From Candidatus Thorarchaeota archaeon (GTDB lineage: Archaea > Asgardarchaeota > Thorarchaeia > Thorarchaeales > Thorarchaeaceae): a stretch of DNA of 34,687 nucleotides. The notes beneath the pieces are model-generated. The model saw only the letters and a program-made list of their open reading frames with translations. It was not told where the DNA came from and ran no database searches. Position 1 is the first letter of the stretch. Each line of letters starts with the position of its first letter. Positions 5,025-23,516 of the stretch are shown one piece after another. A program made the translations under genes and the position numbers. The stretch spans positions 1 through 34,687 of the forward strand of contig JACAEL010000040.1 of assembly GCA_013388835.1 (NCBI GenBank). Direction: 5' to 3'.

Positions 5025-5542
5025 CGTGTCAGGTTTCCCATCCGACGAAGCACCTCTACTGGGACACATTCGCGATTGATGTGCGTGACCTCTATTAGTT
5101 CCACGTCTGGTCTTCTCCTTACGGAGTCCAAGAAAGGATCTCGTCGCATCTGGATGGTGCCCAGTACGCGCCCTGTGCCGAGGCACTCACTCACTTCCTC
5201 GACGAACCGAGGAGAACAGAGTTCCATTCGGGCGATTTCATCTACCACTATCGTCTTCCCTGAGAGCCTAGCTCTCTTCATTGAGGGCACTGCGATGGTC
5301 TCAATGTCAGCCAGGTTGACACTGTATTTGCCGACGGTGGGCCCTCTGACCCCGGACACATGGGCGAGTAGGCCTCTAACACCAGTGAGCGTGGTGATTC
5401 CGAAGCCGACTCGGGTGCCCCTCTCACGAATCTCCTCCGAGAAGAACCCGTCTGCTCTGTGGATTCCGAGCTGCTCAACAACCCTCCTCAGGGCTGTGCT
5501 CTTCCCCACTCCCGGAGGTCCTGTGAGAAGAATGTTGGTCAT
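5021..5542 (-). CDS. THEP1-family nucleoside-triphosphatase
   Basis: The 173-residue protein has a Walker A motif right at the N-terminus (MTNILLTGPPGVGKSTALRR) and a Walker B segment TIVVDEIARMEL, in which the family-typical D-E-I-x-x-M-E-L is complete. The middle ADGFFSEEIRERGTRVGF and GVRGPTVGKYSV also match the archaeal/bacterial THEP1 NTPase family, which hydrolyses NTPs in vitro; its physiological role is not settled and a nucleic-acid link has been proposed. The frame stays open to 5656, but the additional 38 residues are not family-like, and ATG 5542 has a GAGGAAGG stretch shortly upstream. The gene is convergent with the surface-protein gene; the two stop codons share the tetranucleotide CTAG. 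Confidence 0.85.
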   Translation of the reverse strand: MTNILLTGPPGVGKSTALRRVVEQLGIHRADGFFSEEIRERGTRVGFGITTLTGVRGLLAHVSGVRGPTVGKYSVNLADIETIAVPSMKRARLSGKTIVVDEIARMELCSPRFVEEVSECLGTGRVLGTIQMRRDPFLDSVRRRPDVELIEVTHINRECVPVEVLRRMGNLTR

Positions 5543-6082
5543 TCGATGGCCTTCCTCAAGCTGGACTTCCAACATCCCATGATAGGTGTTCTGGTCTGCT
5601 GACAGGGCTCCGCCGGGCGCGGTGAGCGTGCACGCAGTGCTCCACTGACCGATCATGTGACAACGCAGCGTTTCATGCTTGGACTGTCCATTCTCAGCTG
5701 CGCAGAATGGGACACAGGAGTCCTGTCGCTCCTAGGAAGCGGTACTGGGGTTTCTCTGCAAGGTCCTGCGACATGTCTAGTCGACCTGCGTCTCTCTGTT
5801 CACGTACGGAGGCACATGAGCATCAAGCGGTGATGTCCAAGATTGATTATCTTCTGGGCAGCTGCTGCTGGCCCTTCATGTCCTGTCACTCGGTCTCGTG
5901 GGGATGCTCTGACCCAAGGAACGGGACATGAAGACGCCTGTTGGGTTCCGGTGACCAATTGCAGCCTTCGTTTCGGTCCGCAGGTGTCTGACCACAGAGA
6001 TCTCCCTGCGGCAGACCATTTCGTACAGCTTCTGCACCGCTGTCACTGGGGCAAGACGAGTCATCGGTCCACGTCCCAGTGC
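5543..6082. other. Gene-poor interval with one doubtful small ORF
   Basis: Between the NTPase start and the FrhB-like stop I find no convincing gene. A minus-strand ATG frame at 5876-6064 (62 codons) starts 19 bases after the FrhB stop and has rather coding-like third positions (QKLYEMVCRREISVV...), so it could be a small gene or a remnant, but it has no clear ribosome-binding site or recognisable family. No tRNA-like fold or clear hairpin terminator was found here. Confidence 0.3.
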
Positions 6083-8004: not shown

Positions 8005-8048
8005 TTGCCCCTGTGCTTGCTATTCCGCTAGCGGCCGGTCAACTGGTG

Positions 8049-9545
8049 CTAGGCCACTCTCAGGTCGACCCGGAATATGTTCTTGCCATCCTCCCGCACA
8101 TAGTCAAGTTTCCCCTTGTATCGGACCACCAGCGTCTTGACAAGAAAGAGCCCTAATCCCAGTCGTCCTCCACTCGGGACGAATGGGTCGAAGATGGCGG
8201 ACTTCACCTGCTCGGGCAGAGGTGGTCCACTGTCGGCGATAGTGACCCCCGCCCAACCGGGTGTGTCCATCATAATCTCAATCTTGATGGAGGGCTCCGG
8301 TTCCGGACTGAACGTGATGCTATTCTTCAGCAGGTTTACGAACACTTGAGGCCCAAGTTCATCAGCCAGCACGAAGATCTCGGAAGAGGGTGGATTGAAG
8401 ACGAACAGGGCGCTCCTCTGCGGTTGCATCTTGGAGACCATCTCCAACGCAGAGACAATCATGTCGCAGAGTCCGACTCGCTTGGTGACTGTCTTCTCTC
8501 CGCTCTTGACCTGTGCCATCTCAGTTATCCGAGCGATGATTGTCGCTGTCCTCTCCACAAGCGACCTGATTGCTTCTTCACATTCCCGGCTGTTGCCCTC
8601 TGGCAGTTCAAGATACAGCATGATGCTCTGCAGGAGGTTACGCACCTCATGACTCCAGAGATAGAGGTAGAACTCGCTCTCATCCTTGGCGATTCTTGTC
8701 TCTCTGGTTCGTTGGAGTACTATCTCGCTGAGAGCAGTCTCTCGTTCAATCGAGAATGCGACGGTCATAGCTATCGCCACGAAGAGAAGGCCTTCGGTTC
8801 CTGCGGCCATCGCCACAAGACTGCCCAATGATGTCCCAGGTCCACTGGGTATCGTGACATAGGCTGTAGTGACCATGAGCATGGAAATCGCCATGAGGAC
8901 TGCAAGGGGGAGCGGCGTTCTTCGTTTTCGGAACTCCAGCCACCATGCATAGCTGGCTGTGAGAATGAACAGGATGCAGATGCTGAGAACGAGAAAGCCC
9001 AGCGGAGTGATGCCATGCCCTCTGACTGCTAGTGCGGGAATCTCGACTGGAAGTACGGTGAGGACAATGAAGAGAATGGGCAATACTAGCAGCATTACGA
9101 CGATGTAGGAGAGGTAGGCCGACCTACCGACCAGTTGCTTTCTGAAGACGAACTCGAGTGCGACACTGGCTGGCACTACAACACCTATCGTGGCGGCAAT
9201 CATCTGTGACTTCGCAATCGATGTGGGAACTGGCAACAGTCTTGGACCCACCGGATAGCTCAGGGCGAAGAGGAATGAGAGAAACGCTACCAACAGCGTG
9301 GCAGTTGACAAAGCCATGTATCTTGTCTGCTTGCCTTGCGAGAACAGTGCCATCCCCAGAGTTGATATGAGTATGCAGATTGCACATGTGCCGCCGACGA
9401 GCAAGTGAAGCCACGAAGAGAAGACATATTCATCCAGTGGTATCCATGTCTCATTGTTGATGTAGAATAGCATGTACAGTATCAATGACGCAACATAGAA
9501 GAGCTTCAGACACCGCTCGGTGTCACACACGAGTCTCCTTGGCAT
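8049..9545 (-). CDS. Sensor histidine kinase with eight-helix membrane sensor
   Basis: The 498-residue protein has about eight hydrophobic helices in the first 275 residues with short loops and no large extracellular domain, suggesting a membrane-embedded sensor. The kinase core follows: H-box WSHEVRN (phospho-acceptor His299), N-box NLLKNSI (404-410), G1 DSGPP (438-442) and G2 GRLGLGLFLV (460-469). These are the standard dimerisation and ATP-binding elements, so autophosphorylation is expected. No receiver, PAS or response-regulator gene is nearby, and the phosphotransfer partner and signal are unknown. It is convergent with ribA; the 44-base gap between them contains the palindrome CCGCTAGCGG. 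The ATG at 9545 is preceded by a second copy of the same 10-base start-region sequence (see the repeat entry). Confidence 0.88.
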   Translation of the reverse strand: MPRRLVCDTERCLKLFYVASLILYMLFYINNETWIPLDEYVFSSWLHLLVGGTCAICILISTLGMALFSQGKQTRYMALSTATLLVAFLSFLFALSYPVGPRLLPVPTSIAKSQMIAATIGVVVPASVALEFVFRKQLVGRSAYLSYIVVMLLVLPILFIVLTVLPVEIPALAVRGHGITPLGFLVLSICILFILTASYAWWLEFRKRRTPLPLAVLMAISMLMVTTAYVTIPSGPGTSLGSLVAMAAGTEGLLFVAIAMTVAFSIERETALSEIVLQRTRETRIAKDESEFYLYLWSHEVRNLLQSIMLYLELPEGNSRECEEAIRSLVERTATIIARITEMAQVKSGEKTVTKRVGLCDMIVSALEMVSKMQPQRSALFVFNPPSSEIFVLADELGPQVFVNLLKNSITFSPEPEPSIKIEIMMDTPGWAGVTIADSGPPLPEQVKSAIFDPFVPSGGRLGLGLFLVKTLVVRYKGKLDYVREDGKNIFRVDLRVA

Positions 9546-9561
9546 CCTACATCCTTGGCAT
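9536..9561 (-). repeat. Direct 10-base repeat around the histidine-kinase start codon
   Basis: On the minus strand ATGCCAAGGA occurs twice, separated by TGTAGG. The downstream copy (9536-9545) contains the start codon assigned to the kinase gene; the upstream copy (9552-9561) would start a four-codon reading frame that ends at TAG. It may be a small duplication or a leader mini-ORF. Confidence 0.5.
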
Positions 9562-9864
9562 TACATCTCTCGCACGCCATCACTGGCTTGTCCCAATGGG
9601 ATGTTGTGAGTATGTGCGTGACATGATTTAAGCAAATGTGTGCTTGCCACTGCGACCATGATAGGTCAATGAGATCAATATGCTCACTTCCGATGCTGCA
9701 TGAGACGTCGTCTCATTTGACATAGATAGTCTGAGATGTGCACTCGGAGGGAGTGTGGTCACGAATCTCGTGTGGTCATGCCATGAGTCTACGGAACGAC
9801 TGGAACGACGACTCTACAATAGAACAGCCATCAGGAATCCTGCATCATCTGAACCACTTGCCTG
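9562..9864. other. Intergenic stretch without recognised gene
   Basis: This lies between the kinase start and the terminator of the next leftward gene. I see A/T-rich stretches such as GATTTAAGCAAATG near 9625 that could serve as promoter elements for the leftward kinase gene, but no credible coding frame, RNA gene or repeat. The plus-strand frame that begins at 9738 is antisense to the small zinc-ribbon gene and has no family resemblance. Confidence 0.5.
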
Positions 9865-9907
9865 GAAGAAAAAGTAGAGAAGCCCAGTGTGGGCCTCGGG
9901 CTTCTCT
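9865..9907 (-). terminator. Hairpin with U-rich tail after the small zinc-ribbon gene
   Basis: A perfect 10-bp inverted repeat, AGAGAAGCCC (9876-9885) and GGGCTTCTCT (9898-9907), encloses a 12-base loop. Read leftward, the stem lies 12 bases after the stop of the 81-residue zinc-ribbon gene and is followed by ACTTTTTCTTCC. This is the layout of an intrinsic terminator; archaeal RNA polymerase mainly needs the U-tract. Confidence 0.65.
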
Positions 9908-9918
9908 GAGACGACCGG

Positions 9919-10164
9919 CTACTTCTTGCCTTTCCATGCAGGCATCGTTGCCATGTAGTTGTCAACTGCCTTCTCGGCGTCGGATCGCGGGATCTTCTCT
10001 CTGTCCATCCAATAAGAGATCATTTCCTCTCGAACAATGCTCCTGGGCTTCAGCGACCCATCCTCGTTGCTACAGTAGACACAGGTCGGGTTGCCCATCT
10101 TGTGACCGCCGAACTCCTCGGGTTTGGTCATGGGCATTCCACATGAGATACAGTTCTGAGTCAC
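9919..10164 (-). CDS. Small zinc-ribbon protein (putative zinc ribbon domain family)
   Basis: The 81-residue protein begins MTQNCISCGMPMTKPEEFGG and continues with TCVYCSNEDGSLK, giving CxxC...CxxC (four zinc-ligand cysteines). The C-terminal half (EEMISYWMDREKIPRSDAEKAVDNYM) is helical. The pattern C-I-S-C-G-M-P-M ... Y-C-x-x-(E/D)-x-G-x-L matches the widespread 'putative zinc ribbon' family of unknown function, also found in bacteria. The start is GTG 10164 with GAGGT nine bases upstream on the minus strand. It is divergent from the PadR-type regulator, sharing an 88-base promoter region, so regulation by that protein is possible. Confidence 0.85.
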   Translation of the reverse strand: MTQNCISCGMPMTKPEEFGGHKMGNPTCVYCSNEDGSLKPRSIVREEMISYWMDREKIPRSDAEKAVDNYMATMPAWKGKK

Positions 10165-10200
10165 TTCTTCTAGACCTCACGAACACTGCTTCACGAGTGA

Positions 10201-10206
10201 TTATAA
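10201..10206. promoter_or_regulatory. Palindromic TATA element between the zinc-ribbon and PadR-type genes
   Basis: TTATAA reads the same on both strands in the 88-base divergent region. On the minus strand it is about 37 bases before GTG 10164; on the plus strand it is about 47 bases before ATG 10253. For the plus-strand gene a closer A/T-rich stretch (AACTATCTAA, about 10219-10228) is an alternative. Confidence 0.4.
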
Positions 10207-10252
10207 GGTGGTATCCAAAACTATCTAATGGCGGTTCTGCAAATAGCTAGAC

Positions 10253-11107
10253 ATGGTTCCACGCGACGGAGTGAGAGATGAGATAATGCTTATCATCGAT
10301 CGAACTCCGTGTCACGGGTATGAGATAAGGCGACGCCTTCAGCCACTTCTCGGTGACATCGAAATCACAAGGCTCTACCGGATTCTGAAGCAGATGGAGG
10401 AAGAGGGTCTCATTGTCTGTTCTGAAACCGAGGGTCCGCATGGTCCTTCTAGGCGAGTATACAGCAAGGGCGAGAAGGGAGAGAGGTATCTTCGGCGACT
10501 GCTCAGGGACTCCATGAGGACCATCTTCCACTTTTATGAAGCGTTCAGTGACCATATGCTGGAGAGGTCAATGCAGGACACTGTCAGGGAAGAGTTGCAT
10601 CCGTGCTCAGGCAAGATACTCGTGTGCAATCTCTCACCGTATGTCAGCGTTGGCGACTCAACACTGAACCTCATCCGCGAGCGAGCTGGAGAGTCCGGGC
10701 TGTACGTGGTTGGCGACACTCTGCTGTGGGAACAGAGCGGCGTCAAATGCGGTTCTGTGAAGGGAGAGCCCTGGGACCTGTCCGTTCGGAGCAACTCCTT
10801 TGCAGAGTACTGGTTGCTTGGAACACCACCCAGGGCGATGCTTCCGGGCACTATATGTGAAGCGAAGCGCGTACTGATAGAGGACGGTGTGTTTCACCTG
10901 AATGCCGGTCTCGTCTTTCTCAACGAAGTGGTCGACGCCGGTCTGGAGTCCTTCATCAAGAACACTGCCGTAATGCTGTTTCCTGAACTGGGTGTGGTTG
11001 ACGGTGAAGAGATCTGTGAGATTCTTGGGTCTCAGTTCTCGAAGCATGGGACTGTCGTGCTCAGTCCCGGTCTGGTGCAATTCTGGGCTATGAAGCACAG
11101 CGAATAG
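10253..11107 (+). CDS. PadR-type winged-helix protein fused to a degenerate methyltransferase-like domain
   Basis: Residues 1-90 form a PadR-like winged helix: CHGYEIRRRLQPLL, ITRLYRILKQMEEEGLI, then a wing GPHGPSRRVYSKGEKGERYL. These proteins usually act as DNA-binding dimers. Residues 118-284 replace the normal short PadR helical tail. This part has a Rossmann-like pattern (GKILVCNLSPYVSVG, GLYVVGDTLLWE) and a segment WDLSVRSNSFAEYWLLG ... ICEAKRVLIEDGVFHL that resembles motifs IV-V of class I methyltransferases (xxLPFxDNSFDxVxxxx ... xxExxRVLKPGGxxxx). The glycine-rich SAM-binding motif I is poor, so methyl transfer is doubtful; a ligand-sensing role is an inference. The gene is divergent from the small zinc-ribbon gene. 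Confidence 0.8.
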   Translation: MVPRDGVRDEIMLIIDRTPCHGYEIRRRLQPLLGDIEITRLYRILKQMEEEGLIVCSETEGPHGPSRRVYSKGEKGERYLRRLLRDSMRTIFHFYEAFSDHMLERSMQDTVREELHPCSGKILVCNLSPYVSVGDSTLNLIRERAGESGLYVVGDTLLWEQSGVKCGSVKGEPWDLSVRSNSFAEYWLLGTPPRAMLPGTICEAKRVLIEDGVFHLNAGLVFLNEVVDAGLESFIKNTAVMLFPELGVVDGEEICEILGSQFSKHGTVVLSPGLVQFWAMKHSE

Positions 11108-11200
11108 GCACCGTCGGATTACCTCCTACTGATGGTGAACAGGAGTTCAGTTGGACTCCGTCATCCGTCTGTCCCAGCGAAGGGACTGTTCTGTGTCCCG

Positions 11201-11371
11201 TCAGCTGCGGCGCAGGCATCTGTCAAGCACATCATCATCCGTCGTGTTCAAGATGGACCTGAGGACTGCCGCTATGTGCTGAAGGTCTTCTTCCAGTCGC
11301 CTGAGTCTTGCCTCGTACTCCTCGAGTCTTCGGGTCTGGTCCGCAGGTTGTTGTGTGGTCTTCACCTGCAT
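11201..11371 (-). CDS. Possible small coiled-coil protein downstream of herA
   Basis: An ATG 26 bases after the herA stop opens a 56-residue frame, MQVKTTQQPADQTRRLEEYE then ARLRRLEEDLQHIAAVLRSI, with a clear heptad-like amphipathic helix. The frame is open further upstream within herA, but those residues overlap its 3' end and look spurious. No ribosome-binding site is evident. Position and strand suggest a third gene of the nurA-herA unit, perhaps an accessory subunit. The evidence is limited to the coiled-coil character and the location. Confidence 0.4.
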   Translation of the reverse strand: MQVKTTQQPADQTRRLEEYEARLRRLEEDLQHIAAVLRSILNTTDDDVLDRCLRRS

Positions 11372-11396: not shown

Positions 11397-13286
11397 TTAT
11401 TCCTCCTCCTGCCGCTTATGATGGTCCAAGTACAGCATAAGCACATCCTCTGCATTGTCCGCCTTGACAAACACAGGGACGTTGTCTAGACCTGTCGCTA
11501 TGTAGCTTGAGAGAAGCCACGAACCTGGAGGAAACTCGAGGGTCTTATCAAGGATGCTCAGGTCAATCTGGAACGAGCTGCTCACGACTGTCCTATCATA
11601 TGGTCTGGGTAGCGTGCCCACGAAGAAGGTGTGAAGCTGCTGCAGGATGTTTGTGTTCACGTAGGCAATTCTCTGCGTGGCCACCGCACCTCCAAGTCCA
11701 TACTTCCTTCCCTGCCTTAGCAGTCGCTCCACTGCCGCACTGCAGTGAGCCAGGTGGCCGCTGGCGTTGTTGGGAATGAACTCCTGCGCCTCGTCGAATA
11801 CGAACAGAATCTGCGGCCTTATCTCAAAGGACTTCTTTCTCTGGCGCAGAGCCGCTTCGGTGAGTCTTATCACCAACTCGCGGATTATGTCCGGGTCTGC
11901 AATCGATATGCATAGCACTCTCTCTGGACCGCCCAGCATCTTCAGCATGTCCTTGACTGTCACTCCCGAGGACGCAGCCGTCCTGCTCCTTGCAATCACA
12001 GACTTCAAGGAGTCCCTCGTGGTACCCCACGCGTATAGAGTGGACTTCTCATGCACGTAGAACTTGGCCATTGCATCTTGTGCCTCGGCGTGCAGGTGGT
12101 CAACAAACTGCTCGTCTAGCTCGTCGTTCTCTCTCTTGTTCATCCTTGTCATCCAGTCGTATACTGCGTCAATGATCTCATCAATGGCCTGCACATACGT
12201 GGGTTTGGACATGTTCTCAGTTCGCATGCTGCGGGCTTCTTCTATGATCGAGTTGTAGGTCGGCACATCGGTAAGTGGCCTGTTGAAGTAGGTGACAACA
12301 CCTCGTCTGAAGATGTCCTCCAGAATGCCGTTGGCGGCAGGATTGTCCTCAAAGTCTCTTGGCTTCACAATGGACTTTGCGAAACGCGCTCCATCCGATG
12401 GGTCTTCCTCGAGGACTATCTTCGACTTGATCTTCGAGTCCATGAAGACATCCGACAGAAGGAAGGGGTACTCGCAAGAGATGTCGAAGAGCACGACCTT
12501 TGTATCCTTGGTGTGGTACAGGATGCGTCGGATAAGATTCGAGACAAGGTTACTCTTCCCTCCGCCGGTGAATGAGAACACTCCAAAGTGGTACCTGACA
12601 AGCTTGTAGATGTCCACGTAGATTGGTATCTGCTCATCAGACTCGGTGAACATCCTCAACACTCCGACTCTCGGGTCTTTCCTCGGGTCTGGAGACGTGA
12701 AATCCTTGTCGAATCCGATTGCCTTCTTGACCCGGTCATTGTATATCAGGTTGACGAGGTCCGAGTGGATTACTTGAACCTTTGAGCCCACGAGCGGGTA
12801 GGAGAACCCCTTCCTGAATTCGATGTTGCCATGTTCGTCAAGTATCAGGTCGTAGTTGATAGGTATTGCATCGAGCTGTATCATCATTGTGGACTGGTCA
12901 TCAGTGGACCAGTCAGTGACCGCTTGCTCAATTATCTCAAGCTGAAGAGGAAAGTAGTGATTGTCACTCACGCCGCCCAGCCCGTAGTGAAGCGGCCAGA
13001 CCTTCGATACCACCATGACAGTATACCGTTTGATCCTGCTATTGACCGACTTCTTCGAAAAACTCCTGAAGTTCTCTACTGCGAGCAGCATGCCCTCCTC
13101 AAGTTGAGCCATGAGTTCCTTGTCATAGCGAACTTTGACCCGGCAGTCGTATCTGGCTGCCGACCCTGCCCACTCGGATGTGTAGGTCGCCGCAACGGGT
13201 ATTACTTTGGCGAGGACGCCATCGAAGGCTCCATCAAAGTCGGTAAAGAGTGTGATCTTACTCCGTCGTCCGCCTTGTCTGTTCAT
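11397..13286 (-). CDS. herA: HerA-type hexameric DNA translocase/helicase
   Basis: From ATG 13286 the protein has 629 residues. It has an N-terminal beta-barrel-like region, a Walker A FSFTGGGKSNLVSNLI (GGGKSN at 241-246), a Walker B QILFVFDEAQEFIPN (Asp-Glu 498-499), and the HerA-type RQGRKYGLGGAVATQR segment carrying sensor and arginine residues. HerA ATPases form hexameric DNA pumps that work with the nuclease NurA to resect DNA ends; some bacterial and archaeal HerA pairs are antiviral. The frame extends upstream to 13424, but that part overlaps the end of the preceding nurA gene and is low-complexity. The chosen start overlaps nurA by 29 bases, supporting translational coupling. No mre11 or rad50 lies alongside. 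Confidence 0.88.
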   Translation of the reverse strand: MNRQGGRRSKITLFTDFDGAFDGVLAKVIPVAATYTSEWAGSAARYDCRVKVRYDKELMAQLEEGMLLAVENFRSFSKKSVNSRIKRYTVMVVSKVWPLHYGLGGVSDNHYFPLQLEIIEQAVTDWSTDDQSTMMIQLDAIPINYDLILDEHGNIEFRKGFSYPLVGSKVQVIHSDLVNLIYNDRVKKAIGFDKDFTSPDPRKDPRVGVLRMFTESDEQIPIYVDIYKLVRYHFGVFSFTGGGKSNLVSNLIRRILYHTKDTKVVLFDISCEYPFLLSDVFMDSKIKSKIVLEEDPSDGARFAKSIVKPRDFEDNPAANGILEDIFRRGVVTYFNRPLTDVPTYNSIIEEARSMRTENMSKPTYVQAIDEIIDAVYDWMTRMNKRENDELDEQFVDHLHAEAQDAMAKFYVHEKSTLYAWGTTRDSLKSVIARSRTAASSGVTVKDMLKMLGGPERVLCISIADPDIIRELVIRLTEAALRQRKKSFEIRPQILFVFDEAQEFIPNNASGHLAHCSAAVERLLRQGRKYGLGGAVATQRIAYVNTNILQQLHTFFVGTLPRPYDRTVVSSSFQIDLSILDKTLEFPPGSWLLSSYIATGLDNVPVFVKADNAEDVLMLYLDHHKRQEEE

Positions 13287-15174
13287 ATTCTGCACGCCTC
13301 TCTCTGAATGTACTGAGGTAGAACAAGAAGTCTCGAAGCTCTGGCTTCCTTGAAAGCCAGACACCTGTGCTCTCCACCACTCGCTTGAACTCCCCGTAGT
13401 AGAACTTGGCCACCTTGTCTGCAATGTACAGCGGCTTCAGGTGACCGAACAGTTCAGGAATGCTTGCACTGGTCATGCTCTTGAAGACTGTAACGATGAA
13501 CTCCTGCATCGCGTTCTCTGCCCTGTCGTAGAGTACAACACGCACGTCTTCCGGGTCTTCAGGCTTGTTTCCATAGTCGTGTTTCAGTACGAATGTTGTG
13601 CTCTCCTGGTCGTCAATGCCGGGATGCACCAGTCTGTCATAGAGCAGGACATTGCTACGAAGATTCGGTTCGGAACCCGCCTCGGAGAGCTGGAAGTACG
13701 ACTTCACAAAGGTCGAGTTCAAAGAGACCTGGTTCCTACGCGCGCCTGATATCAGTCCGCTCACTCCGTTGAAGTGCGGGACTGTGGTCTTGAATGCAGT
13801 GTCATACTCCATCACTGCCCACGGGACAGGCAATTTGGTCCTCTCTCTCAGTGACACCCACTGAAGTATCATCCTGTCCGTGTCTGGAGTGTCAGCTCCC
13901 ACGTCTTCAAAGGAGCCTTGGAACCTGTTGGTATAGTTCAGTACGGGTAACAACTGGCGCTTCATGTCCCGGGCTGAAGTGTCCTTGGCTATTCCAACGA
14001 GTAGCACGCGGTTCTTCCAGCACATCCTCATGGTCATATACAGGAACATCAGGGACATGAACGCTAGGTCGTTCGTGGTGATCCATCTGCCGTCGATCTT
14101 GAACCGTGTCTCGTAGTCCACTGACGGGTCCTCTGAGAACATCCTCTCTGCTACCTGAAGGACAAGTCTCTCTGTCCGCTCCACAACATCCTTGAACTGA
14201 GGGACGATTGAGAAGTGCTCTCCCTTTCTTGTGATGATCCTCTTTACGGGATCTCTGTTGCTCATCCCCCGTTCCAAGTCCTTGTCTAGCTTGTACTTCT
14301 GTTCTTCGCTCTTGAGGGACAACCGGTCCAGAATCTCCTGTCTGGTCATCGCGCGGGTTGACATCAGTTCCATTATCACGCGCGGCAGGAGGTACTCGCC
14401 TCTGGGTGGTGGAGTGCCAAGCACGGGATTGCCGAAGAGCTGTCTTGCATAGACCCAGTCCGTGGCCGTGAACGTCTGTCCATCCACCTTGGCACCTATC
14501 AGACCTGCTTCGGAAGTTAGATCCATTCGATACTCCGAGGTCTCTGCGTAGTATGAGGACAGTTCCGATGAACATACTCTGTCCATCAGAAGGATGTCAA
14601 CGGGGCTGTTTCCACTGACCAGTCTGTAGGCCAGGTAGAACTCCGCCAGTCCCATAAGATAGTCAGCAAACGCGGAGTTGTCAACAATCCACTGGTCGTG
14701 ATAGGACACGGTTGGGTCCTGAGTCCCAGTCTCGTCCCGACCCAGAATTGTCTGGTCTACTTGGGGCACCTCGTTCACATAGATTGGCAAGACGCTGGAT
14801 ACACCATAGCCGCAGTCATTGAACTCGTCATCGTACGTCACACAGACTCTGCCGTCGCTGGCGACTGACACGTTGCCCTTCGAGAAATACGCACCTGCAA
14901 AGAAGACCACCAGGTCGAACACGGGTTCTTTGTAGATGGTGCCGTCCACAGCGGCGAACTTCAGCTCTCGCTTTCTGAAGAAGGAGTCTACAAGCGATAG
15001 TGAGACCTTGCCATTTGTGTAGCTTCTGAGGATCTTCCCAAGGAATCTATCATAGACTCCTTCCAGGCTGTCTGCTCTGCTCCTGTAGCTTGAGACCTGC
15101 TTCGAGGCACCTTTGAGCAAGAGCTCTCCCGCCTGTTTGAGACGCTTTACTATTGTCGAGCTCTCCTCACTCAA
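13258..15174 (-). CDS. nurA: NurA-type nuclease with an apparent inserted winged helix
   Basis: The 638-residue protein has NurA-like landmarks in order: LKFAAVDGTIY (Asp77, first metal site), ILLMDRV (Asp198, the counterpart of the internal DGS/L motif), RVLLVGIAKDTSARD (391-403, like the GixK motif) and a C-terminal GHLKPLYIADKVAKFYYGEF resembling the final Y-P-x-x-L-x-x-A-H helix. NurA is a 5'-3' exo/endonuclease that works with HerA, and the overlapping herA gene supports the call. Typical NurA proteins have 300-450 residues. The extra length includes residues 262-325 (LPRVIMELMSTRAMTRQEIL, then KRIITRKGEHFSI), which read like a winged helix placed inside the nuclease domain. The start is TTG 15174 with GGTGA nine bases upstream; an in-frame TGA sits four codons before it. 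Confidence 0.75.
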   Translation of the reverse strand: MSEESSTIVKRLKQAGELLLKGASKQVSSYRSRADSLEGVYDRFLGKILRSYTNGKVSLSLVDSFFRKRELKFAAVDGTIYKEPVFDLVVFFAGAYFSKGNVSVASDGRVCVTYDDEFNDCGYGVSSVLPIYVNEVPQVDQTILGRDETGTQDPTVSYHDQWIVDNSAFADYLMGLAEFYLAYRLVSGNSPVDILLMDRVCSSELSSYYAETSEYRMDLTSEAGLIGAKVDGQTFTATDWVYARQLFGNPVLGTPPPRGEYLLPRVIMELMSTRAMTRQEILDRLSLKSEEQKYKLDKDLERGMSNRDPVKRIITRKGEHFSIVPQFKDVVERTERLVLQVAERMFSEDPSVDYETRFKIDGRWITTNDLAFMSLMFLYMTMRMCWKNRVLLVGIAKDTSARDMKRQLLPVLNYTNRFQGSFEDVGADTPDTDRMILQWVSLRERTKLPVPWAVMEYDTAFKTTVPHFNGVSGLISGARRNQVSLNSTFVKSYFQLSEAGSEPNLRSNVLLYDRLVHPGIDDQESTTFVLKHDYGNKPEDPEDVRVVLYDRAENAMQEFIVTVFKSMTSASIPELFGHLKPLYIADKVAKFYYGEFKRVVESTGVWLSRKPELRDFLFYLSTFRERRAEYEQTRRTTE

Positions 15175-16660: not shown

Positions 16661-18679
16661 ATGCCAATAGTACTTGAGGATGCAGACCTCAATCTCAACC
16701 GCGCAGTCACGTTTGAGTGGCTCTACACCAATGGACTGGGCGGTTACGCATCCTCAACAATCGTTGGCCTGAATACGCGTGGATATCATGGTATTCTTGC
16801 CTGCTCACTCAGCCCGCCAGTCGACAGATGGGTCACCGTGTCACGTCTTGACGAGGTGGTGGTGACCTCTCAGGGCGAGTGCAACCTGAGCACCGAGCAG
16901 ACGACCAAAGGTGTTACGCACCGGGGCTATCGGCAGCTGAGGGGCTTCATGATGAACCCACTACCTCAGATGACCTACGGTACCGATTGCTTGACGATGC
17001 ACAAGACCGTCTTCATGGCATACCGAAGGAACATCACAGTGGTGAACTATGAGTTGTCCACAACTGAGGAGACCGTCTTTACTGTCACTCCATTGCACAC
17101 AAACAGGCCCCTCCATGCAAGGCCTCCCACCCTTGACTTCACGCCCGAGTACGAGACCATCAATGAACACTCCTATCTTGCCTTCGATGAGAGGCGCAAC
17201 TCGCCATGGACCATTGTCTACACTCCCGACGCGGAGTTCATGTCCTCGGAGATTCGTGTCACCGAACCACAGGTGTACCGTGAGGACCAAGCTGAAGGAT
17301 TGCCTTGTATCGAACAGCTATGGATTCCGGGCGTCTTTCACACCATACTGAAGCCCGGTTCTCACTACATCTCGTTTCTGTTTGCTGCGGGTCCCGGCAA
17401 GAAGGAGTTGCTGGGAAGTCTGGGCACACTGACTAACGCGACAGTGAAAGACTTTGCAAAGCTGCGCTTTGATGAGTTGCGGCGGCGAAAGGTGCTGAAC
17501 GACAGGGCGTTCTCTCTCACTGAGAAGCCCCGAGACGAGGACATGGAGTGGCTGGTGTTCAATGCTGACTCGTTCATAGTGGACCGAGCAACATCGAAGG
17601 CACGCTCTGTGATTGCAGGGTACCACAGTCTGAAGGACATCGGTCTTGATGCCATGCTGTCACTGACCGGTCTCACCTTGTCCGTCGGTCGATTTCAGGA
17701 TGCCCGCGAGATACTGACCACCTATGCTCGGCACTCTCGGTATGGTCTTGTTGCCAACGACTTTCCAGAGCGAGGCATTCAACCGGAGTATGACAGCGTT
17801 GACGCATCACTGTGGTACATCCTCGCTTTGAGGAACTACGTTCGTGCTACGAGCGATACGGAGTTCCTGTCGGGTCTCATATGGGAGACTGTTGAGTCAA
17901 TCATCTCCGCCTTCAGACTGGGAACCAAATTCAACATTCACGAGGACCACGATGGGTTGATCTGGTCTGGAATCGAGGGCATCGAGGTCTCATGGATGAA
18001 CGAGCGCATCTAGGGGTGGGTTGCGACACCGAGGGTCGGGAAGTGCGTCGAGGTCAATGCCCTCTGGTACAATTCACTCATGGCGATCGGCGAGATGCTT
18101 GAGGCTCGTGGCTCTGACCCGTACGAATACACTGCGGTCGCCTCGTGGATTCGTGAATCGTTCAACCAAGTGTTCTGGAACCCGGACCTGCAGTGTCTCT
18201 ACGATGTGGTGACCGACGAAGCGAAGGATGACTCTATTCGTCCAAACCAGATTCTCGCTGTCGGCCTTCCCTTTGAGCTCTTGGACAAGGACAGGGCGAA
18301 AGCGGTACTCAAGGTGGTGACGGACGAACTGCTCACTCCTTACGGACTGAGGACCCTCTCGCCCAAGGACCGGAGGTTCGCGCGGGCAGTGACAGGCGGT
18401 CCTCGGGCACGGGCAGGAGCTGTTCACCAGGGAGCAGTACATCCGTGGTTGATTGGGCCCTATGTCTCAGCGTACTTGAATGTGCACGGGCGGACTGAAG
18501 AGAATCGGGCGTACGCGAAGGAACACTTCTTCCGTCCGGTCCTCAACACCATACGAAGCGGATGCCTTGGCACAATCTCTGACATGTTTGATGGAAGTAA
18601 GCCTCATCGAGACCGAGGCTGCGTGTCCAGAGCACGAAGTGTCGCAGAGCTCCTCAGGCTGTACTTTGAGGAGCTGTGA
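16661..18679 (+). pseudogene. Amylo-alpha-1,6-glucosidase / glycogen debranching-type gene interrupted by an in-frame TAG
   Basis: Residues 1-450 and the 221 codons after the stop are one reading frame separated only by TAG at 18011-18013. The N-terminal domain (EWLYTNGLGGYASSTIVGLN, RGYHGILACSL) is the debranching-enzyme N domain. The C-terminal part (EVNALWYNSL, IRPNQILAVGLPFELLD, LLTPYGLRTLSP, GAVHPWLIGPYV) is the (alpha/alpha)6-barrel catalytic domain. Normally this enzyme removes alpha-1,6 branches from glycogen-like polymers. The stop replaces one residue in the conserved WMDxxxGxWVxTPR region. Family-typical residues also differ: WMD is WMN (Asn447), S-E-x-F-D-G is SDMFDG, and HQGxVWPW is HQGAVHPW. 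As I recall, the first two carry the general acid and base. An ATG at 18080 could start a separate 199-residue product. An assembly error, a dead gene, readthrough or a two-part protein are all possible. Confidence 0.8.
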
Positions 18680-18768
18680 CGCTTACGGTTGTCGGGGGTG
18701 CACACACGAACAAGAATGACATCGATGATGACCACAACGCGAGTCACTGAGCGGTGGGACGTGAGAGA

Positions 18769-19761
18769 ATGAGTCTGCCAAGAGAAGTGCACTGTGTACC
18801 GCTCCCAACAGGACTGCCAGTTGGCCCTGTCAATGCCTACTTGATTGATGGCGATCCAATCACCCTTGTGGACACCGGTCTCAAGAGCGATGAGTCATGG
18901 CAAGCTCTCCAGCATCACTTGGCACAGACTGGACATACTGTTGCGGACGTGCGACAGATTCTCATCACGCATGGCCATGTAGACCATGCCGGTCAAGCCG
19001 CAAGGATTGTGGCCGCCCAGAAGACAGAGGGACTGACGCCCGCGCAGGTATACATTCACACGGGTGACCTTGAACGAGTCTCAGATTACGATGCGTACAT
19101 GGAAGCGAGGGCCGACGCGTATGTGAGGGTTGCTAGAGAGTCGGGCGTGTCACAGAGTGGTCTCATGCTGCCATCCCCATCCATGATCATCCGATACTTC
19201 CGCGGCATGGGGGAGTCTCTGGAGAGTGTGGTCGGCATCAATGACGGGACGTCCTTCAACACAGGGATTGGGCCCTTGGAGGCCGTATGGACTCCGGGTC
19301 ACTCGTTTGGGTCAACATGCTATGTCAGCCGCGAACACGGTCTGCTCTTCAGTGGGGACCATGTCTTGTCGGACATCAGCTCGAATCCAAGCATTGACTT
19401 TGACTCATTTCAGGACATCGCAATGCTCGTGTACCTGCGTTCGCTTGAGCGGCTTCGTGAGTTCGACGGCTACACGGTCCTGCCGGGACACCGTGACATC
19501 ATACGTCGGCTTGTCTCACGAATAGACGAGCTCATCGACGACTATGAACGCAAGTTTGACCAGGCAAGACAAGCACTCCGACCAACCCCACTGAGTGTCT
19601 ATCAGATGTCACGAGTGCTGTATGGCGACTACGGATTCGGACAGATGATACTTGCTCTGGCCGAGACAAATGACATCCTGAAGGTGCTTGAGCGCAGAGG
19701 TCAGGCACGGCTCGAAGTCAAGTCCGGCGTGCTGACAGCAAGACTCCCAGACACTGTATGA
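18769..19761 (+). CDS. Metallo-beta-lactamase-fold hydrolase
   Basis: The 330-residue protein has the fold's metal-binding signature THGHVDHAG (His68, His70, Asp72, His73), then TPGHSFGSTCY, LLFSGDHVLSD and VLPGHRDII, which together supply the two-zinc site. An N-terminal PVNAYLIDGDPITLVDTG is the usual first strand pair. The last 80 residues (SVYQMSRVLYGDYGFGQMIL, LKVLERRGQARLEVKSGVL) look like a winged helix, as in LACTB2/RNase-like or hydroxyacyl-thioester hydrolase relatives. The substrate could be a thioester, a phosphodiester or RNA and cannot be chosen from motifs alone. A GTG five codons upstream is possible, but ATG 18769 follows GTGAG closely. The gene follows the debranching-type gene on the same strand after an 89-base gap. 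Confidence 0.87.
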   Translation: MSLPREVHCVPLPTGLPVGPVNAYLIDGDPITLVDTGLKSDESWQALQHHLAQTGHTVADVRQILITHGHVDHAGQAARIVAAQKTEGLTPAQVYIHTGDLERVSDYDAYMEARADAYVRVARESGVSQSGLMLPSPSMIIRYFRGMGESLESVVGINDGTSFNTGIGPLEAVWTPGHSFGSTCYVSREHGLLFSGDHVLSDISSNPSIDFDSFQDIAMLVYLRSLERLREFDGYTVLPGHRDIIRRLVSRIDELIDDYERKFDQARQALRPTPLSVYQMSRVLYGDYGFGQMILALAETNDILKVLERRGQARLEVKSGVLTARLPDTV

Positions 19762-19778
19762 TACATCCAGCTCCTTAT

Positions 19779-19784
19779 TATATA
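19779..19784 (+). promoter_or_regulatory. TATA box upstream of the 1176-residue surface protein gene
   Basis: TATATA within CTTATTATATACTAGG lies about 200 bases before ATG 19986. If it is used, the transcript has an unusually long leader of about 175 bases for this window. That leader contains a 7-bp inverted repeat, TCCATCA (19823-19829) and TGATGGA (19850-19856). Confidence 0.45.
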
Positions 19785-19985
19785 CTAGGGTCTAATGATA
19801 CCTTGCAGTCCAATGGTCCATTTCCATCAGAGAACATGAGGTATCCCTTTGATGGACATTAACCCAGAGCATCCTTCACGCCCGAACACCTTGCCGGTAA
19901 TCGTGCACTTACAGAGTGGTACAGAGAGTGATGTACAGCCCGGTGAGGCTTGGGTGGCTGGCTTGCTCAATGTGAGGTAACAGAC

Positions 19986-22900
19986 ATGAGAAAAGCAGAC
20001 ACACTGACAATAGTGGCACTCCTAGTGACCAGCGTGGCCACCGGTGCCCTAATGGTAAGTGCCCAGTCATCGGAGCCCTTCGTGACGGTCGGTTGGCGGG
20101 AAGTGAACCAGTTCACGGAGTTCGAACACACCAATGAGAACTCACAGTGGATCTTTGGTCCACAACCAGTCACAGTGGCCTACTACGAGGCCAACAACAC
20201 CGACATCAGTCAGAACAAGTATCGGCTTGAGGTGGGCACTGAGTTCATAGTGAACATAACAATCCCGAAGAGCTTCCTTGGTCCGGATGTCGGACTTGAA
20301 GCGGTCGTGTTCTGGGGGAAGGGAGTGCTCCCAAGGTCTCCTGTCTTTGCAGTGAGCTACAATGTCACAGCTGACAAGTGGGAGTCATTCGCTTTCCGAT
20401 ACACGCCAGGGTCGGAAGAGCCGGTCGCTAGCGACTTCATGCATCTGGATGTTGCAGAGTCGAGTTACGGAGAGGGAGTGCAGGACCACCAGGTCAGCTT
20501 CCACATCACGTATTCGTTGAGCGTAGGTCCGCGTATCCTGATGACCGGGATGCAGGCCGTCGACACACTCAATCGGCCCTCGTCACCGTCTTGGCTGGCT
20601 GCAGTGGGTCGGGGTTTCGAGACACCCCCGCTCGGACTTGAGACCGATGTCGACCCTCGTTCATTTGGTCTCACAGAGTACTACTACGCTGAGGTCACTG
20701 ATCTGTCCGGCAACCTCCTGCATCACGTCGGCTTCTGGGATGAGTTCGTCTTCCACATTCGAGCGAACGTCGAGTTTGGCGAGGTGGTGATCCCGTTCTC
20801 ATACATCACGATGAATGAGTCGTACTTCCGCGACTACATTATTCACTTGCCGGTCAATCCCTACAGCCTAAGCACATCGTGGACAACCCTCACTGAGCTA
20901 CCGCCTTTCCTCGTCTTCATCTACGATGGCGGAGTCCCGGAGGTTGCAGCTGGCTTCCTGGACAATGTCAGCTGGCACTGGAGCATTGACGCTCAGATGT
21001 GGTATCCATCCTTTGACATTCTGATCAACGAGACGATAGACATCAGCGACTACTACGTCCTCACCGGAACGGAGGTCCTGAACGGCGGGGCGTCTGTGTC
21101 GTGGACCGGCTGCTACACTGACAAGACCGACATGAACCCAGATCCACTTTCCGTCGGTGCAACAATCCGACCAGACCCGTTCTTCTGGAGGGTTGAGGAC
21201 ATGAAGGACCAAGCACTTGTGCCACGGCCTGAGATAGTCTCCCACAGCACTGTGCTCCTTGCTTTCATGGACCGTTTCATCGAAGGCTATGTGAAGCGTG
21301 ATGGAGTCATTGTACACCGGGTCGAGCAGGGCGACATCCTGAATGTGACTCTCGAGATCTATGGTCCTGGTGCTTTGATCAACGGTACGACCTACATTCC
21401 TTTCAACATGACACACTCAGGTTATGACTGGGCGGGACTCTATGTACACATCAGACGTGACAACGTCACGCTATGGGTCGAGGGCCAGTCCCGAGGTGAG
21501 AATGCCACTCATTACTGGTTGAAGCTGTACCACTACAACATGACTCTGTTCTACGAGAGCCAGACTTTCGATTCCTCAGTGTCTGTCACCACGATAACAT
21601 ACGACAAGGCAACACACGGTGAGGTTGCGTGGACCACAGAGTATCACAACGACTGGCTAACCCTTCATGATGCAGGACTTGTGGTAGGAGCCCAGCACTC
21701 GACTGCTTGGTTCGTCCTCACCTTTGAAGACGAGGCTCCCGATATGGTCTTTTCAAGTGCCCATCTGATCTCCGGTTTCCATGCGCTTGGTCAGTGGAAT
21801 GTGTCCTTGGAGGGTCAGAACAACTGGGTCTTGTATCCTGTCATCGGCCCAAGCTACAACTGGGACGACAACAGTTCATCGGTGGTCGAGACACTAGATG
21901 GCAGAGTGCTATGGACTCCCAACCGGTTCATACTGGGTGGTCTCGACCCATGGGAGCCTGAGGCATGGACTGTCACTGATGACGGTGCAATCGACCTTGA
22001 TGGCAATGAGTTCACGACTGAAGACCAGTACTTCGTCATGCGCACGGGCTACTGGAAGGACTGGGGCAACACGAGCGTCGAGGGAATGATCGTGTCATAC
22101 GTTCTCGATCCATCTCCGGGCAACAACGGCGATGAGTATCATGCGTCCAACTGGATGGGCGTTGTCGAGATGACAATCGAGTTCGAGGCCAATGAGACCT
22201 TCCACTGGTATCATGCCTCCGACTTCACCCCCGTGAACAACTCGGAACTCGCATCCATTCGCACCTTGATGTGGGCAAATGAGACGGCCGGTATACCGAA
22301 TCCGGGATATCGGTATGTCGCCTGGACAACCACCAGCAGAGTCCTCGATCTGACTCCCCTCACTGGTCTGGACAGCAATGTCTGGACAAACACATGGTTC
22401 GCGTGGGGGACTGAGCAGACGTACCGTGTTGCGATATCAGAGACCTCAACCACATGGGCGATGTTCAGAGCCAAATACGCAGGACTGTTGCTCTTCAACG
22501 ACACTCTTGAGGACGGCGCAGACAGCGCACCTGACTTTGCCATAGTGGACGGGCATGTCGTGACAGAAGAGGTAACACATCTTGTCCTCATCGACTCAGT
22601 GGACTCCATTGTCCTTCGCAAGCCGTTTGGTGCGACAAACCAGACCGGCTTGGTGCAAGTGACTCCTGACACACCGGTCGAATTCGGCATCTCCATTGTG
22701 GGTGTCAACGTCACAATCTATCCGCTCAGAGTCGAGCACTCTGAAGGCCTTCGAGGAGCATGGGACTTTAGAGAGTCGTTTGAAGGAGCACTCGGTCTCA
22801 ATCCGGAGCTCTTCGACTATGCCGTGACGCATGCCAGGGTGACACAGATGTCCTTTGACATTCGCTTCACCACGGACATGGTCCAGTACGACCCTGATGA

Positions 22901-23516
22901 CCCGACCAGGTGGAACCATGCTGTATCCTGCAAGATAGACCAGACCTTCGGGAACTGGACTCTTGAGGAGTTCGACAACTCAGTACTTGAGGACCGCAGT
23001 CTGGCTGTGAACTTCTTCGGGGTGCTCGCCACAGGTACAAGGTCACAGTACACTGCTAACGGAACGGTCGTGACGGACCCGAACAGCGCCAGCCTGAATG
23101 CGTCCTACTACACATTTGGTGCCGCTGACATGCCGTACGCGGAAGTCAGGATGGGTGGACTGCCATACACATACGGCGGCGACGGTCATACCACTGTCTA
23201 TACATCGGGCTCCTCCACCGCGCCAATCGGTGCCTTCAGCCTGATGTACGAGTCCTCCTCAGGTAGCACTGTGACCGACTGGACCATAGAGGCCTCGATG
23301 CTCTTCATGACTGCCGGTTACGAGCACTGGGGCGGCCACGAGATTCTGTGCGACCCCGTGTTCATATCGTATCCGAGCGCCATGCAGACAAGCTACACAA
23401 CCACCACTGGTGGGACAACTACTGGTACTACGGGTGGAAACGGTGCTGTCATTCTGGTAGCAGCGATTGCTATCATCGTGGTCCTTGGCTGCGCAGCAGT
23501 CCGCAGGAAACACTAG
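19986..23516 (+). CDS. Large secreted, membrane-anchored surface protein (S-layer-like)
   Basis: The 1176-residue product begins MRKADTLTIVALLVTSVATG, a signal peptide with cleavage likely after the following VSAQ. It ends with a Thr/Gly-rich linker, a transmembrane helix (AVILVAAIAIIVVLG) and basic RRKH, the layout of archaeal envelope proteins held by a C-terminal anchor. N-x-S/T sequons occur throughout and cysteines are almost absent. Aromatic and Asp-rich beta segments dominate (for example WSIDAQMWYPSFDILINETI). No catalytic motif or known domain was recognised. ATG 19986 is favoured over upstream in-frame codons by GAGGT (19974-19978) seven bases ahead and by the signal peptide. It is followed immediately by a strong terminator. 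An S-layer or major envelope glycoprotein role is an inference from architecture. Confidence 0.85.
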   Translation: MRKADTLTIVALLVTSVATGALMVSAQSSEPFVTVGWREVNQFTEFEHTNENSQWIFGPQPVTVAYYEANNTDISQNKYRLEVGTEFIVNITIPKSFLGPDVGLEAVVFWGKGVLPRSPVFAVSYNVTADKWESFAFRYTPGSEEPVASDFMHLDVAESSYGEGVQDHQVSFHITYSLSVGPRILMTGMQAVDTLNRPSSPSWLAAVGRGFETPPLGLETDVDPRSFGLTEYYYAEVTDLSGNLLHHVGFWDEFVFHIRANVEFGEVVIPFSYITMNESYFRDYIIHLPVNPYSLSTSWTTLTELPPFLVFIYDGGVPEVAAGFLDNVSWHWSIDAQMWYPSFDILINETIDISDYYVLTGTEVLNGGASVSWTGCYTDKTDMNPDPLSVGATIRPDPFFWRVEDMKDQALVPRPEIVSHSTVLLAFMDRFIEGYVKRDGVIVHRVEQGDILNVTLEIYGPGALINGTTYIPFNMTHSGYDWAGLYVHIRRDNVTLWVEGQSRGENATHYWLKLYHYNMTLFYESQTFDSSVSVTTITYDKATHGEVAWTTEYHNDWLTLHDAGLVVGAQHSTAWFVLTFEDEAPDMVFSSAHLISGFHALGQWNVSLEGQNNWVLYPVIGPSYNWDDNSSSVVETLDGRVLWTPNRFILGGLDPWEPEAWTVTDDGAIDLDGNEFTTEDQYFVMRTGYWKDWGNTSVEGMIVSYVLDPSPGNNGDEYHASNWMGVVEMTIEFEANETFHWYHASDFTPVNNSELASIRTLMWANETAGIPNPGYRYVAWTTTSRVLDLTPLTGLDSNVWTNTWFAWGTEQTYRVAISETSTTWAMFRAKYAGLLLFNDTLEDGADSAPDFAIVDGHVVTEEVTHLVLIDSVDSIVLRKPFGATNQTGLVQVTPDTPVEFGISIVGVNVTIYPLRVEHSEGLRGAWDFRESFEGALGLNPELFDYAVTHARVTQMSFDIRFTTDMVQYDPDDPTRWNHAVSCKIDQTFGNWTLEEFDNSVLEDRSLAVNFFGVLATGTRSQYTANGTVVTDPNSASLNASYYTFGAADMPYAEVRMGGLPYTYGGDGHTTVYTSGSSTAPIGAFSLMYESSSGSTVTDWTIEASMLFMTAGYEHWGGHEILCDPVFISYPSAMQTSYTTTTGGTTTGTTGGNGAVILVAAIAIIVVLGCAAVRRKH

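What the first reader, a model, noticed from the sequence alone, without database searches (positions are those of the whole stretch)
13258..15174. NurA nuclease with a winged-helix domain inserted in the middle
NurA-like motifs flank residues 262-325, which read as a winged helix (helices, then a KRIITRKGEHFSI wing), and the protein is far longer than ordinary NurA. A DNA-binding module placed inside the nuclease could steer the HerA-NurA machine to particular ends or sequences. The locus has no mre11/rad50, unlike the classical archaeal operon.
Basis: partly seen in the sequence, partly recalled or inferred. Interest (0 to 1): 0.65.

Follow-up and report, generated by a model that had tools for sequence, protein, structure and literature searches.

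The report
NurA nuclease with inserted DNA-binding module
A Thorarchaeal chromosome carries a second, oversized copy of the DNA-end-chewing nuclease NurA, paired with its motor HerA, with a ready-made DNA-binding-type domain spliced into its catalytic fold; the same arrangement is kept across Asgard archaea and Thermoproteota, yet I found no description of it.

Summary
The ORF at 13258-15174 (-, 638 aa) is predicted (AlphaFold2 on 67 homologues, pLDDT 88.7) to fold as a NurA nuclease: Z 19.5 to Sulfolobus NurA, 310 of that chain's 319 residues aligned. Residues 259-327 form a separate winged helix matching MarR-like domains (Z 8-9), lying between catalytic strand beta4 (D198) and beta5 (K397). 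The catalytic residues and the insert are kept in 67 of 67 aligned relatives. One distant relative (L159) lacks just the winged helix, so it is a removable module. A HerA gene follows, overlapping by 29 bp. The same genome separately encodes a canonical NurA-HerA pair (386 + 509 aa) and Mre11-Rad50, so this is a paralogous machine. Neighbours are housekeeping genes; no phage, plasmid, viral-contig or CRISPR link was found. Best reading: a vertically inherited accessory HerA-NurA that translocates and degrades or resects duplex DNA, with the winged helix gripping DNA near the nuclease; that role is inferred. A rare subclade (three loci) sits inside restriction-modification loci, so a substrate-discriminating role remains open.

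The parts
13258..15174 (-). Long NurA-family nuclease gene with inserted winged helix, 638 aa, TTG start (P0001)
   Evidence: ORF; AF2 model; NurA fold; family
14194..14400 (-). Inserted winged helix-turn-helix, residues 259-327 (H259-272, H278-284, H290-304, strands 314-317 and 320-323)
   Evidence: secondary structure; wHTH matches; Pfam wHTH hits in relatives; absent in L159
14944..14946 (-). Predicted catalytic Asp77 (DGT motif on beta1)
   Evidence: invariant in 67/67 and in all 21 more distant members shown; equated with the NurA DGG/DGS Asp by motif order
14641..14643 (-). Predicted catalytic Glu178 (helix alpha1)
   Evidence: invariant 67/67
14581..14583 (-). Predicted catalytic Asp198 at the end of beta4, before the insert
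   Evidence: invariant 67/67; LLMDR aligns with ILVDG of canonical NurA
13984..13986 (-). Lys397 (VGIAKD motif after beta5), after the insert
   Evidence: invariant 67/67; VGIAKD aligns with VGVVKD of canonical Thor NurA
13417..13419 (-). Asp586 (PLYIAD), position of the C-terminal His/Asp of NurA
   Evidence: invariant 67/67; aligns with PILEAD of canonical Thor NurA
13258..13286 (-). Overlap of nurA end and herA start (29 bp), consistent with translational coupling
   Evidence: sequence; similar overlaps in most related loci
11397..13286 (-). HerA ATPase partner, 629 aa, ATG start
   Evidence: Pfam DUF87 2.7e-16; PADLOC HerA 1.1e-42
12552..12572 (-). HerA Walker A, FTGGGKS
11784..11798 (-). 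HerA Walker B, FDEAQ

Best explanation
The two overlapping genes encode a second, paralogous HerA-NurA machine. SHOWN by sequence and predicted structure: a NurA-fold nuclease with intact catalytic residues, a discrete winged helix inserted between catalytic strand beta4 (D198) and beta5 (K397), a HerA motor encoded directly downstream, and conservation of the pair as a stable chromosomal unit in Asgard archaea and Thermoproteota. INFERRED here: the insert sits where other archaeal NurA carry an accessory beta4-beta5 element, and its basic recognition helix grips duplex or fork DNA beside the active site, tuning where or how processively the machine cuts. The cell role most likely is an accessory end-resection or DNA-degradation activity beside the canonical HerA-NurA and Mre11-Rad50 of the same genome.
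For: Structure. NurA sequence signal in relatives. Insert conserved in all 67 aligned members and in 20 of 21 more distant ones; absent in L159 with the flanks kept. Recognition helix net charge mean +3.1. herA lies directly downstream of nurA, mostly overlapping it, in nearly every locus with enough sequence, apart from a few splits. Housekeeping neighbours: glycogen debranching enzyme and MFS transporter in Thorarchaeota; TPP-enzyme/ferredoxin genes (por-like), ribosomal protein S7 and an S9 peptidase in Bathyarchaeota. No homologue in phages, plasmids or viral contigs. Canonical pair and Mre11-Rad50 elsewhere in the genome. Mechanism of the known complexes: PMC12977600, PMC9960219.
Against: No activity, complex or DNA binding was tested. 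The winged helix is the least conserved segment. A complex with HerA could not be modelled. Presence is patchy (39 of 145 Asgard genomes at least 85% complete, some of these only fragments), with decayed remnants in one genome (G153), unlike an essential repair enzyme. One subclade lies in restriction-modification loci.
Confidence: 0.55

Rival explanations
1. The pair is a defence (restriction-like) effector: HerA-NurA degrades incoming DNA, and the winged helix discriminates modified from unmodified DNA or a specific sequence.
For: All three members of a divergent subclade (L159, L160, L181) sit among modification or restriction genes: DpdA plus an N6-MTase; a C5 MTase plus an HhH-GPD protein; a C5 MTase, an Eco57I-type MTase and a BsuBI/PstI endonuclease. 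The NurA-like chain of the TdpAB complex matches the fold (8wfd_G, Z 12.9). wHTH domains fused to nucleases are proposed modification readers in phosphorothioate systems (PMC10853773). The HerA best matches a PADLOC HerA model. Patchy distribution.
Against: In Thorarchaeota and Bathyarchaeota the neighbours are conserved housekeeping genes. No CRISPR-like array in 183 sequences, 1.9 Mb. No mobile-element homologues. One modification-linked member, L159, lacks the winged helix, so the winged helix is not required in that context.
Confidence: 0.25
2. The winged helix is a protein-protein or dimerisation element and does not contact DNA; it stabilises the NurA dimer or recruits a partner.
For: In PfNurA the extra beta4-beta5 element contributes to dimerisation (PMC9960219), and the winged helix lies in the same connection. 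It is the most variable segment. Several conserved positions are at its base (P255, P256, R258, L262) or structural (L300, F321).
Against: The recognition helix is on average strongly basic (+3.1) and position 295 is one of the most conserved of the domain, Lys here and Arg in most relatives shown. L159 keeps the rest of the protein without it, so it is not needed for a recognisable NurA.
Confidence: 0.18
3. The protein is an ordinary NurA and the apparent insert is part of the nuclease fold.
For: None found; P0001 alone has no Pfam hit.
Against: The SsoNurA chain aligns over 310 of 319 residues within a 610-residue span of the model, while 259-327 matches free wHTH proteins at rmsd 1.4-1.9. 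L159 has the NurA core without the segment.
Confidence: 0.02

Closest known systems
Archaeal NurA (SsoNurA 2ygk; PfNurA 3tai; Thermococcus kodakarensis NurA 9x1m)
   Same: RNase H-like NurA fold (Z 19.5, 13.6, 14.7), catalytic D-E-D plus Lys and C-terminal Asp/His positions by motif order, HerA partner
   Different: About 140 extra residues between beta4 and beta5 relative to canonical Thor NurA, including a winged helix; no adjacent mre11/rad50; too divergent for a single-sequence Pfam hit
Canonical Thorarchaeal NurA-HerA of the same genome (G000:C6:20087-21244 and 18557-20083)
   Same: NurA (386 aa) followed by HerA (509 aa); shared VGxxKD and P(I/L)xxAD motifs
   Different: No winged helix; its NurA passes the Pfam NurA cut-off clearly (77 bits, 1.7e-21); its HerA is only about 29% identical over 119 residues to the one here
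CRISPR-linked nurA-csm6-herA of Pyrobaculum and other Thermoproteales (PMC3396285)
   Same: Extra nurA-herA paralogue pair beside the repair pair
   Different: No CRISPR array found in the loci examined and no gene between nurA and herA here; whether those NurA carry a winged helix was not tested
TdpAB (cryo-EM 8wfd)
   Same: A two-component complex whose chain G shares the NurA-like fold (Z 12.9); its role in phosphorothioate-linked anti-phage defence is from my own knowledge
   Different: The Thor and Bathy loci show no DNA-modification genes next to the pair
MarR-type winged helix proteins (1sfx, 2nyx, 2pex)
   Same: Fold of residues 259-327 at rmsd 1.4-1.9
   Different: Free-standing regulators; here the domain is embedded in a nuclease

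Membership tests
NurA nuclease family (PF09376) | RNase H-like NurA fold | tested here: met
   Z 19.5 to SsoNurA, 310/319 aligned; the 10 Foldseek hits with E<=0.001 are all NurA
NurA nuclease family (PF09376) | Conserved catalytic acids and Lys in NurA order | tested here: met
   D77, E178, D198, K397, R506, D586 invariant in 67 members; collinear motif alignment with canonical Thor NurA, although that profile-profile score is itself weak (E 0.03)
NurA nuclease family (PF09376) | Sequence match over the Pfam cut-off | tested here: inconclusive
   P0001 alone: no hit. Family: 39/67 at E<=1, best 3.6e-6; G048, L159 and L181 over the cut-off
NurA nuclease family (PF09376) | Metal-dependent nuclease activity stimulated by HerA | not testable with these tools
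   needs purified protein
HerA-NurA gene pair | herA directly linked to nurA | tested here: met
   29 bp overlap; linked in nearly all loci
Classical archaeal herA-nurA-mre11-rad50 cluster | mre11 and rad50 in the same cluster | tested here: not met
   none next to the pair or among the window ORFs scanned; Mre11-Rad50 on contig C56
Winged helix-turn-helix superfamily | Three helices followed by a two-stranded wing | tested here: met
   Pfam HTH hits in relatives
Winged helix-turn-helix superfamily | DNA binding | not testable with these tools
   basic recognition helix is suggestive only
CRISPR-associated nurA-csm6-herA | CRISPR array nearby and csm6 between the genes | tested here: not met
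   no array in 183 sequences incl. the window; nurA and herA overlap directly
Modification-linked restriction systems (Tdp/Dpd-like) | DNA-modification gene adjacent | tested here: not met
   not in the window's neighbourhood (nearest found is an Eco57I-type MTase about 18 kb away); met only for the L159/L160/L181 subclade

The most novel reading that the evidence does not exclude
The winged helix is a substrate reader: it checks duplex DNA (sequence, end structure or base modification) as HerA feeds it to NurA, so that one conserved helicase-nuclease engine serves as a directed resection machine in most lineages and has been recruited as a restriction effector in the methylase/DpdA-linked subclade.
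Probability: 0.25. Interest if true: 0.72.

Novelty: new variant of a known kind. Interest (0 to 1): 0.52.

Why it matters
HerA-NurA is the archaeal DNA-end-processing engine, known from NurA proteins without such a module in the papers I could read. A deep paralogous family, spread over Asgard archaea and Thermoproteota, with a winged helix built into the nuclease would mean archaea run at least two HerA-NurA machines with different substrate handling. The natural winged-helix-free member (L159) and the restriction-modification-linked subclade give direct handles to test what the module does and how a repair engine can become a defence effector.

Tried and rejected
Single-sequence AlphaFold2 gave a useless model (pLDDT 34). 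Profile-profile alignment of the family against 14 canonical Asgard NurA scored weakly (E about 0.03) though its motif alignment is collinear, so I rely on structure and on Pfam hits in relatives. PDB sequence profiles hit only wHTH proteins, at E 0.1-0.3. A single-sequence pattern scan of genome contigs found nothing; with an alignment it found 120 relatives, 80 kept. Viral structures: no match at E<=0.001. CRISPR link checked because the best PADLOC model for the HerA is labelled 'Type III coevolved': no CRISPR-like arrays in 183 sequences. Five longer or divergent Asgard NurA (418-465 aa) scanned for a known HTH: none found. About 26 weak C-terminal-only matches in Thermoproteota (mostly ORFs of about 240-350 aa) are not counted as family members.
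Full report
Observation. The ORF at 13258-15174 (-) encodes 638 aa from a TTG start. By itself it has no hit in Pfam or NCBIfam and no meaningful one in the PDB by sequence. It has relatives in 24 of 59 related genomes and, using an alignment, in 120 candidate stretches of GTDB genomes, of which the best 80 were kept; record titles name Thorarchaeota, Lokiarchaeota, Borrarchaeum, Jordarchaeum, Frey- and Sigynarchaeota, Bathyarchaeota, Wolframiiraptor and Nitrososphaerales. The window is one contig of a Thorarchaeia-like MAG (the lineage is inferred from the titles of its relatives).

Fold. AlphaFold2 with 67 family sequences gave mean pLDDT 88.7, pTM 0.89. The ten Foldseek hits in the PDB with E<=0.001 are all NurA. 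VIA-align gives SsoNurA Z 19.5 with 310 of 319 residues aligned across model residues 8-617, TkoNurA 14.7, PfNurA 13.6 and TdpAB chain G 12.9. 39 of 67 members match PF09376 at E<=1, best 3.6e-6, and a Jordarchaeum member passes the curated cut-off. D77, E178, D198, K397, R506 and D586 are invariant in 67 members, and DGT, LLMDR, VGIAKD and PLYIAD align in order with DGG, ILVDG, VGVVKD and PILEAD of the genome's own canonical NurA (the overall profile score is weak).

The insert. Residues 259-327 are predicted as helix-helix-helix-strand-strand and match free wHTH domains at rmsd 1.4-1.9; several Pfam wHTH models hit individual relatives. The D198-K397 interval is 193-203 aa in all 67 members, about 60 aa in canonical Thor NurA (read). 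This is the beta4-beta5 connection in which archaeal NurA already carries an accessory element, said to aid PfNurA dimerisation (PMC9960219). A segment of 60-85 aa in this place is present in 20 of 21 more distant relatives aligned. The exception, L159, reads through D198 and the following segment, then resumes at the equivalent of residue ~330, with 16 aa left in place of 69, and still matches PF09376 at 3.7e-6 over 88-536. In the tree L159 groups with two insert-bearing members, which suggests loss, though branches are long and the root is by midpoint. Either way the domain is a separable module. It is the most variable segment (entropy 2.08 bits); its third helix carries mean net charge +3.1.

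Partner and context. HerA (11397-13286) overlaps nurA by 29 bp, with Walker A FTGGGKS and Walker B FDEAQ and DUF87 2.7e-16. The pair is linked and mostly overlapping across the family; a few loci have the two genes split by other ORFs (L101/L023, L028, L092). Outside the pair, neighbours differ by lineage but are conserved within lineages: MFS transporter, glycogen debranching enzyme and an FrhB-like protein in Thorarchaeota; TPP-enzyme and ferredoxin genes (por-like), ribosomal protein S7 and an S9 peptidase in Bathyarchaeota. No phage, plasmid or viral-contig relatives and no CRISPR-like arrays. This points to vertical inheritance as a chromosomal unit. The same genome has canonical NurA-HerA on C6 and a Mre11-like gene followed by a Rad50-like ATPase gene on C56. 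Presence in Asgard genomes at least 85% complete is 39 of 145 by tally, a few of these being short or fragmentary matches, so the system is dispensable.

Mechanism. Solved HerA-NurA complexes show six HerA feeding duplex DNA to a NurA dimer that unwinds and cuts it (PMC12977600, PMC9960219). Fold, partner and catalytic residues justify inferring the same engine here. What the winged helix does is inference: DNA grip near the active site is most likely, dimerisation or partner binding is the rival, and substrate discrimination is the most novel reading. The last is fed by the L159/L160/L181 subclade, whose three members sit beside DpdA and an N6-MTase; a C5 MTase and an HhH-GPD protein; and a C5 MTase, an Eco57I-type MTase and a BsuBI/PstI endonuclease. 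Three loci are few (no more were found in 227 Asgard and 398 Thermoproteota genomes), and one of them lacks the winged helix.

Verdict. It is a new variant of a known kind.

Noticed in passing
L159:5053-14001 (G120:C73, Asgard): DUF6884 gene, NurA without the winged helix, HerA, a DpdA-like transglycosylase (PADLOC 2.5e-70), then a 944 aa N6-MTase: a possible 7-deazaguanine DNA-modification locus carrying a HerA-NurA pair.
   Followed up: partly
L181:2088-9158 (G241, Thermoproteota): C5 MTase, NurA with a MarR-like winged helix, HerA, Eco57I-type MTase and BsuBI/PstI endonuclease in one row: a restriction-modification locus enclosing a HerA-NurA pair.
   Followed up: partly
L160:6848-12723 (G101, Asgard): NurA, HerA, C5 cytosine methylase, and an HhH-GPD protein on the other strand.
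   Followed up: partly
L162 (G153:C78), about 5460-5860 and 8042-11227: Decayed fragments of the NurA-like gene (one with a stop), a few kb from a McrBC component, an HhH-GPD protein and a C5 methylase.
   Followed up: partly
window 33281-34669 (-): Eco57I-type type II DNA methyltransferase (M_Eco57I_C 1.3e-20) at the contig end, about 18 kb from the NurA gene.
   Followed up: no
L028:1034-2005: An N6/N4 DNA methylase gene on the opposite strand lies between the nurA and herA genes in this Asgard genome (G044).
   Followed up: no
window 19950-23516 (+): 1188 aa protein without any Pfam match; relatives of similar size lie near the pair in many Thorarchaeota (cluster c8, 16 loci).
   Followed up: partly
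L088:13543-15603: TPP-enzyme C-terminal gene (por-like beta) interrupted by an intein with a LAGLIDADG domain in a Bathyarchaeon.
   Followed up: no
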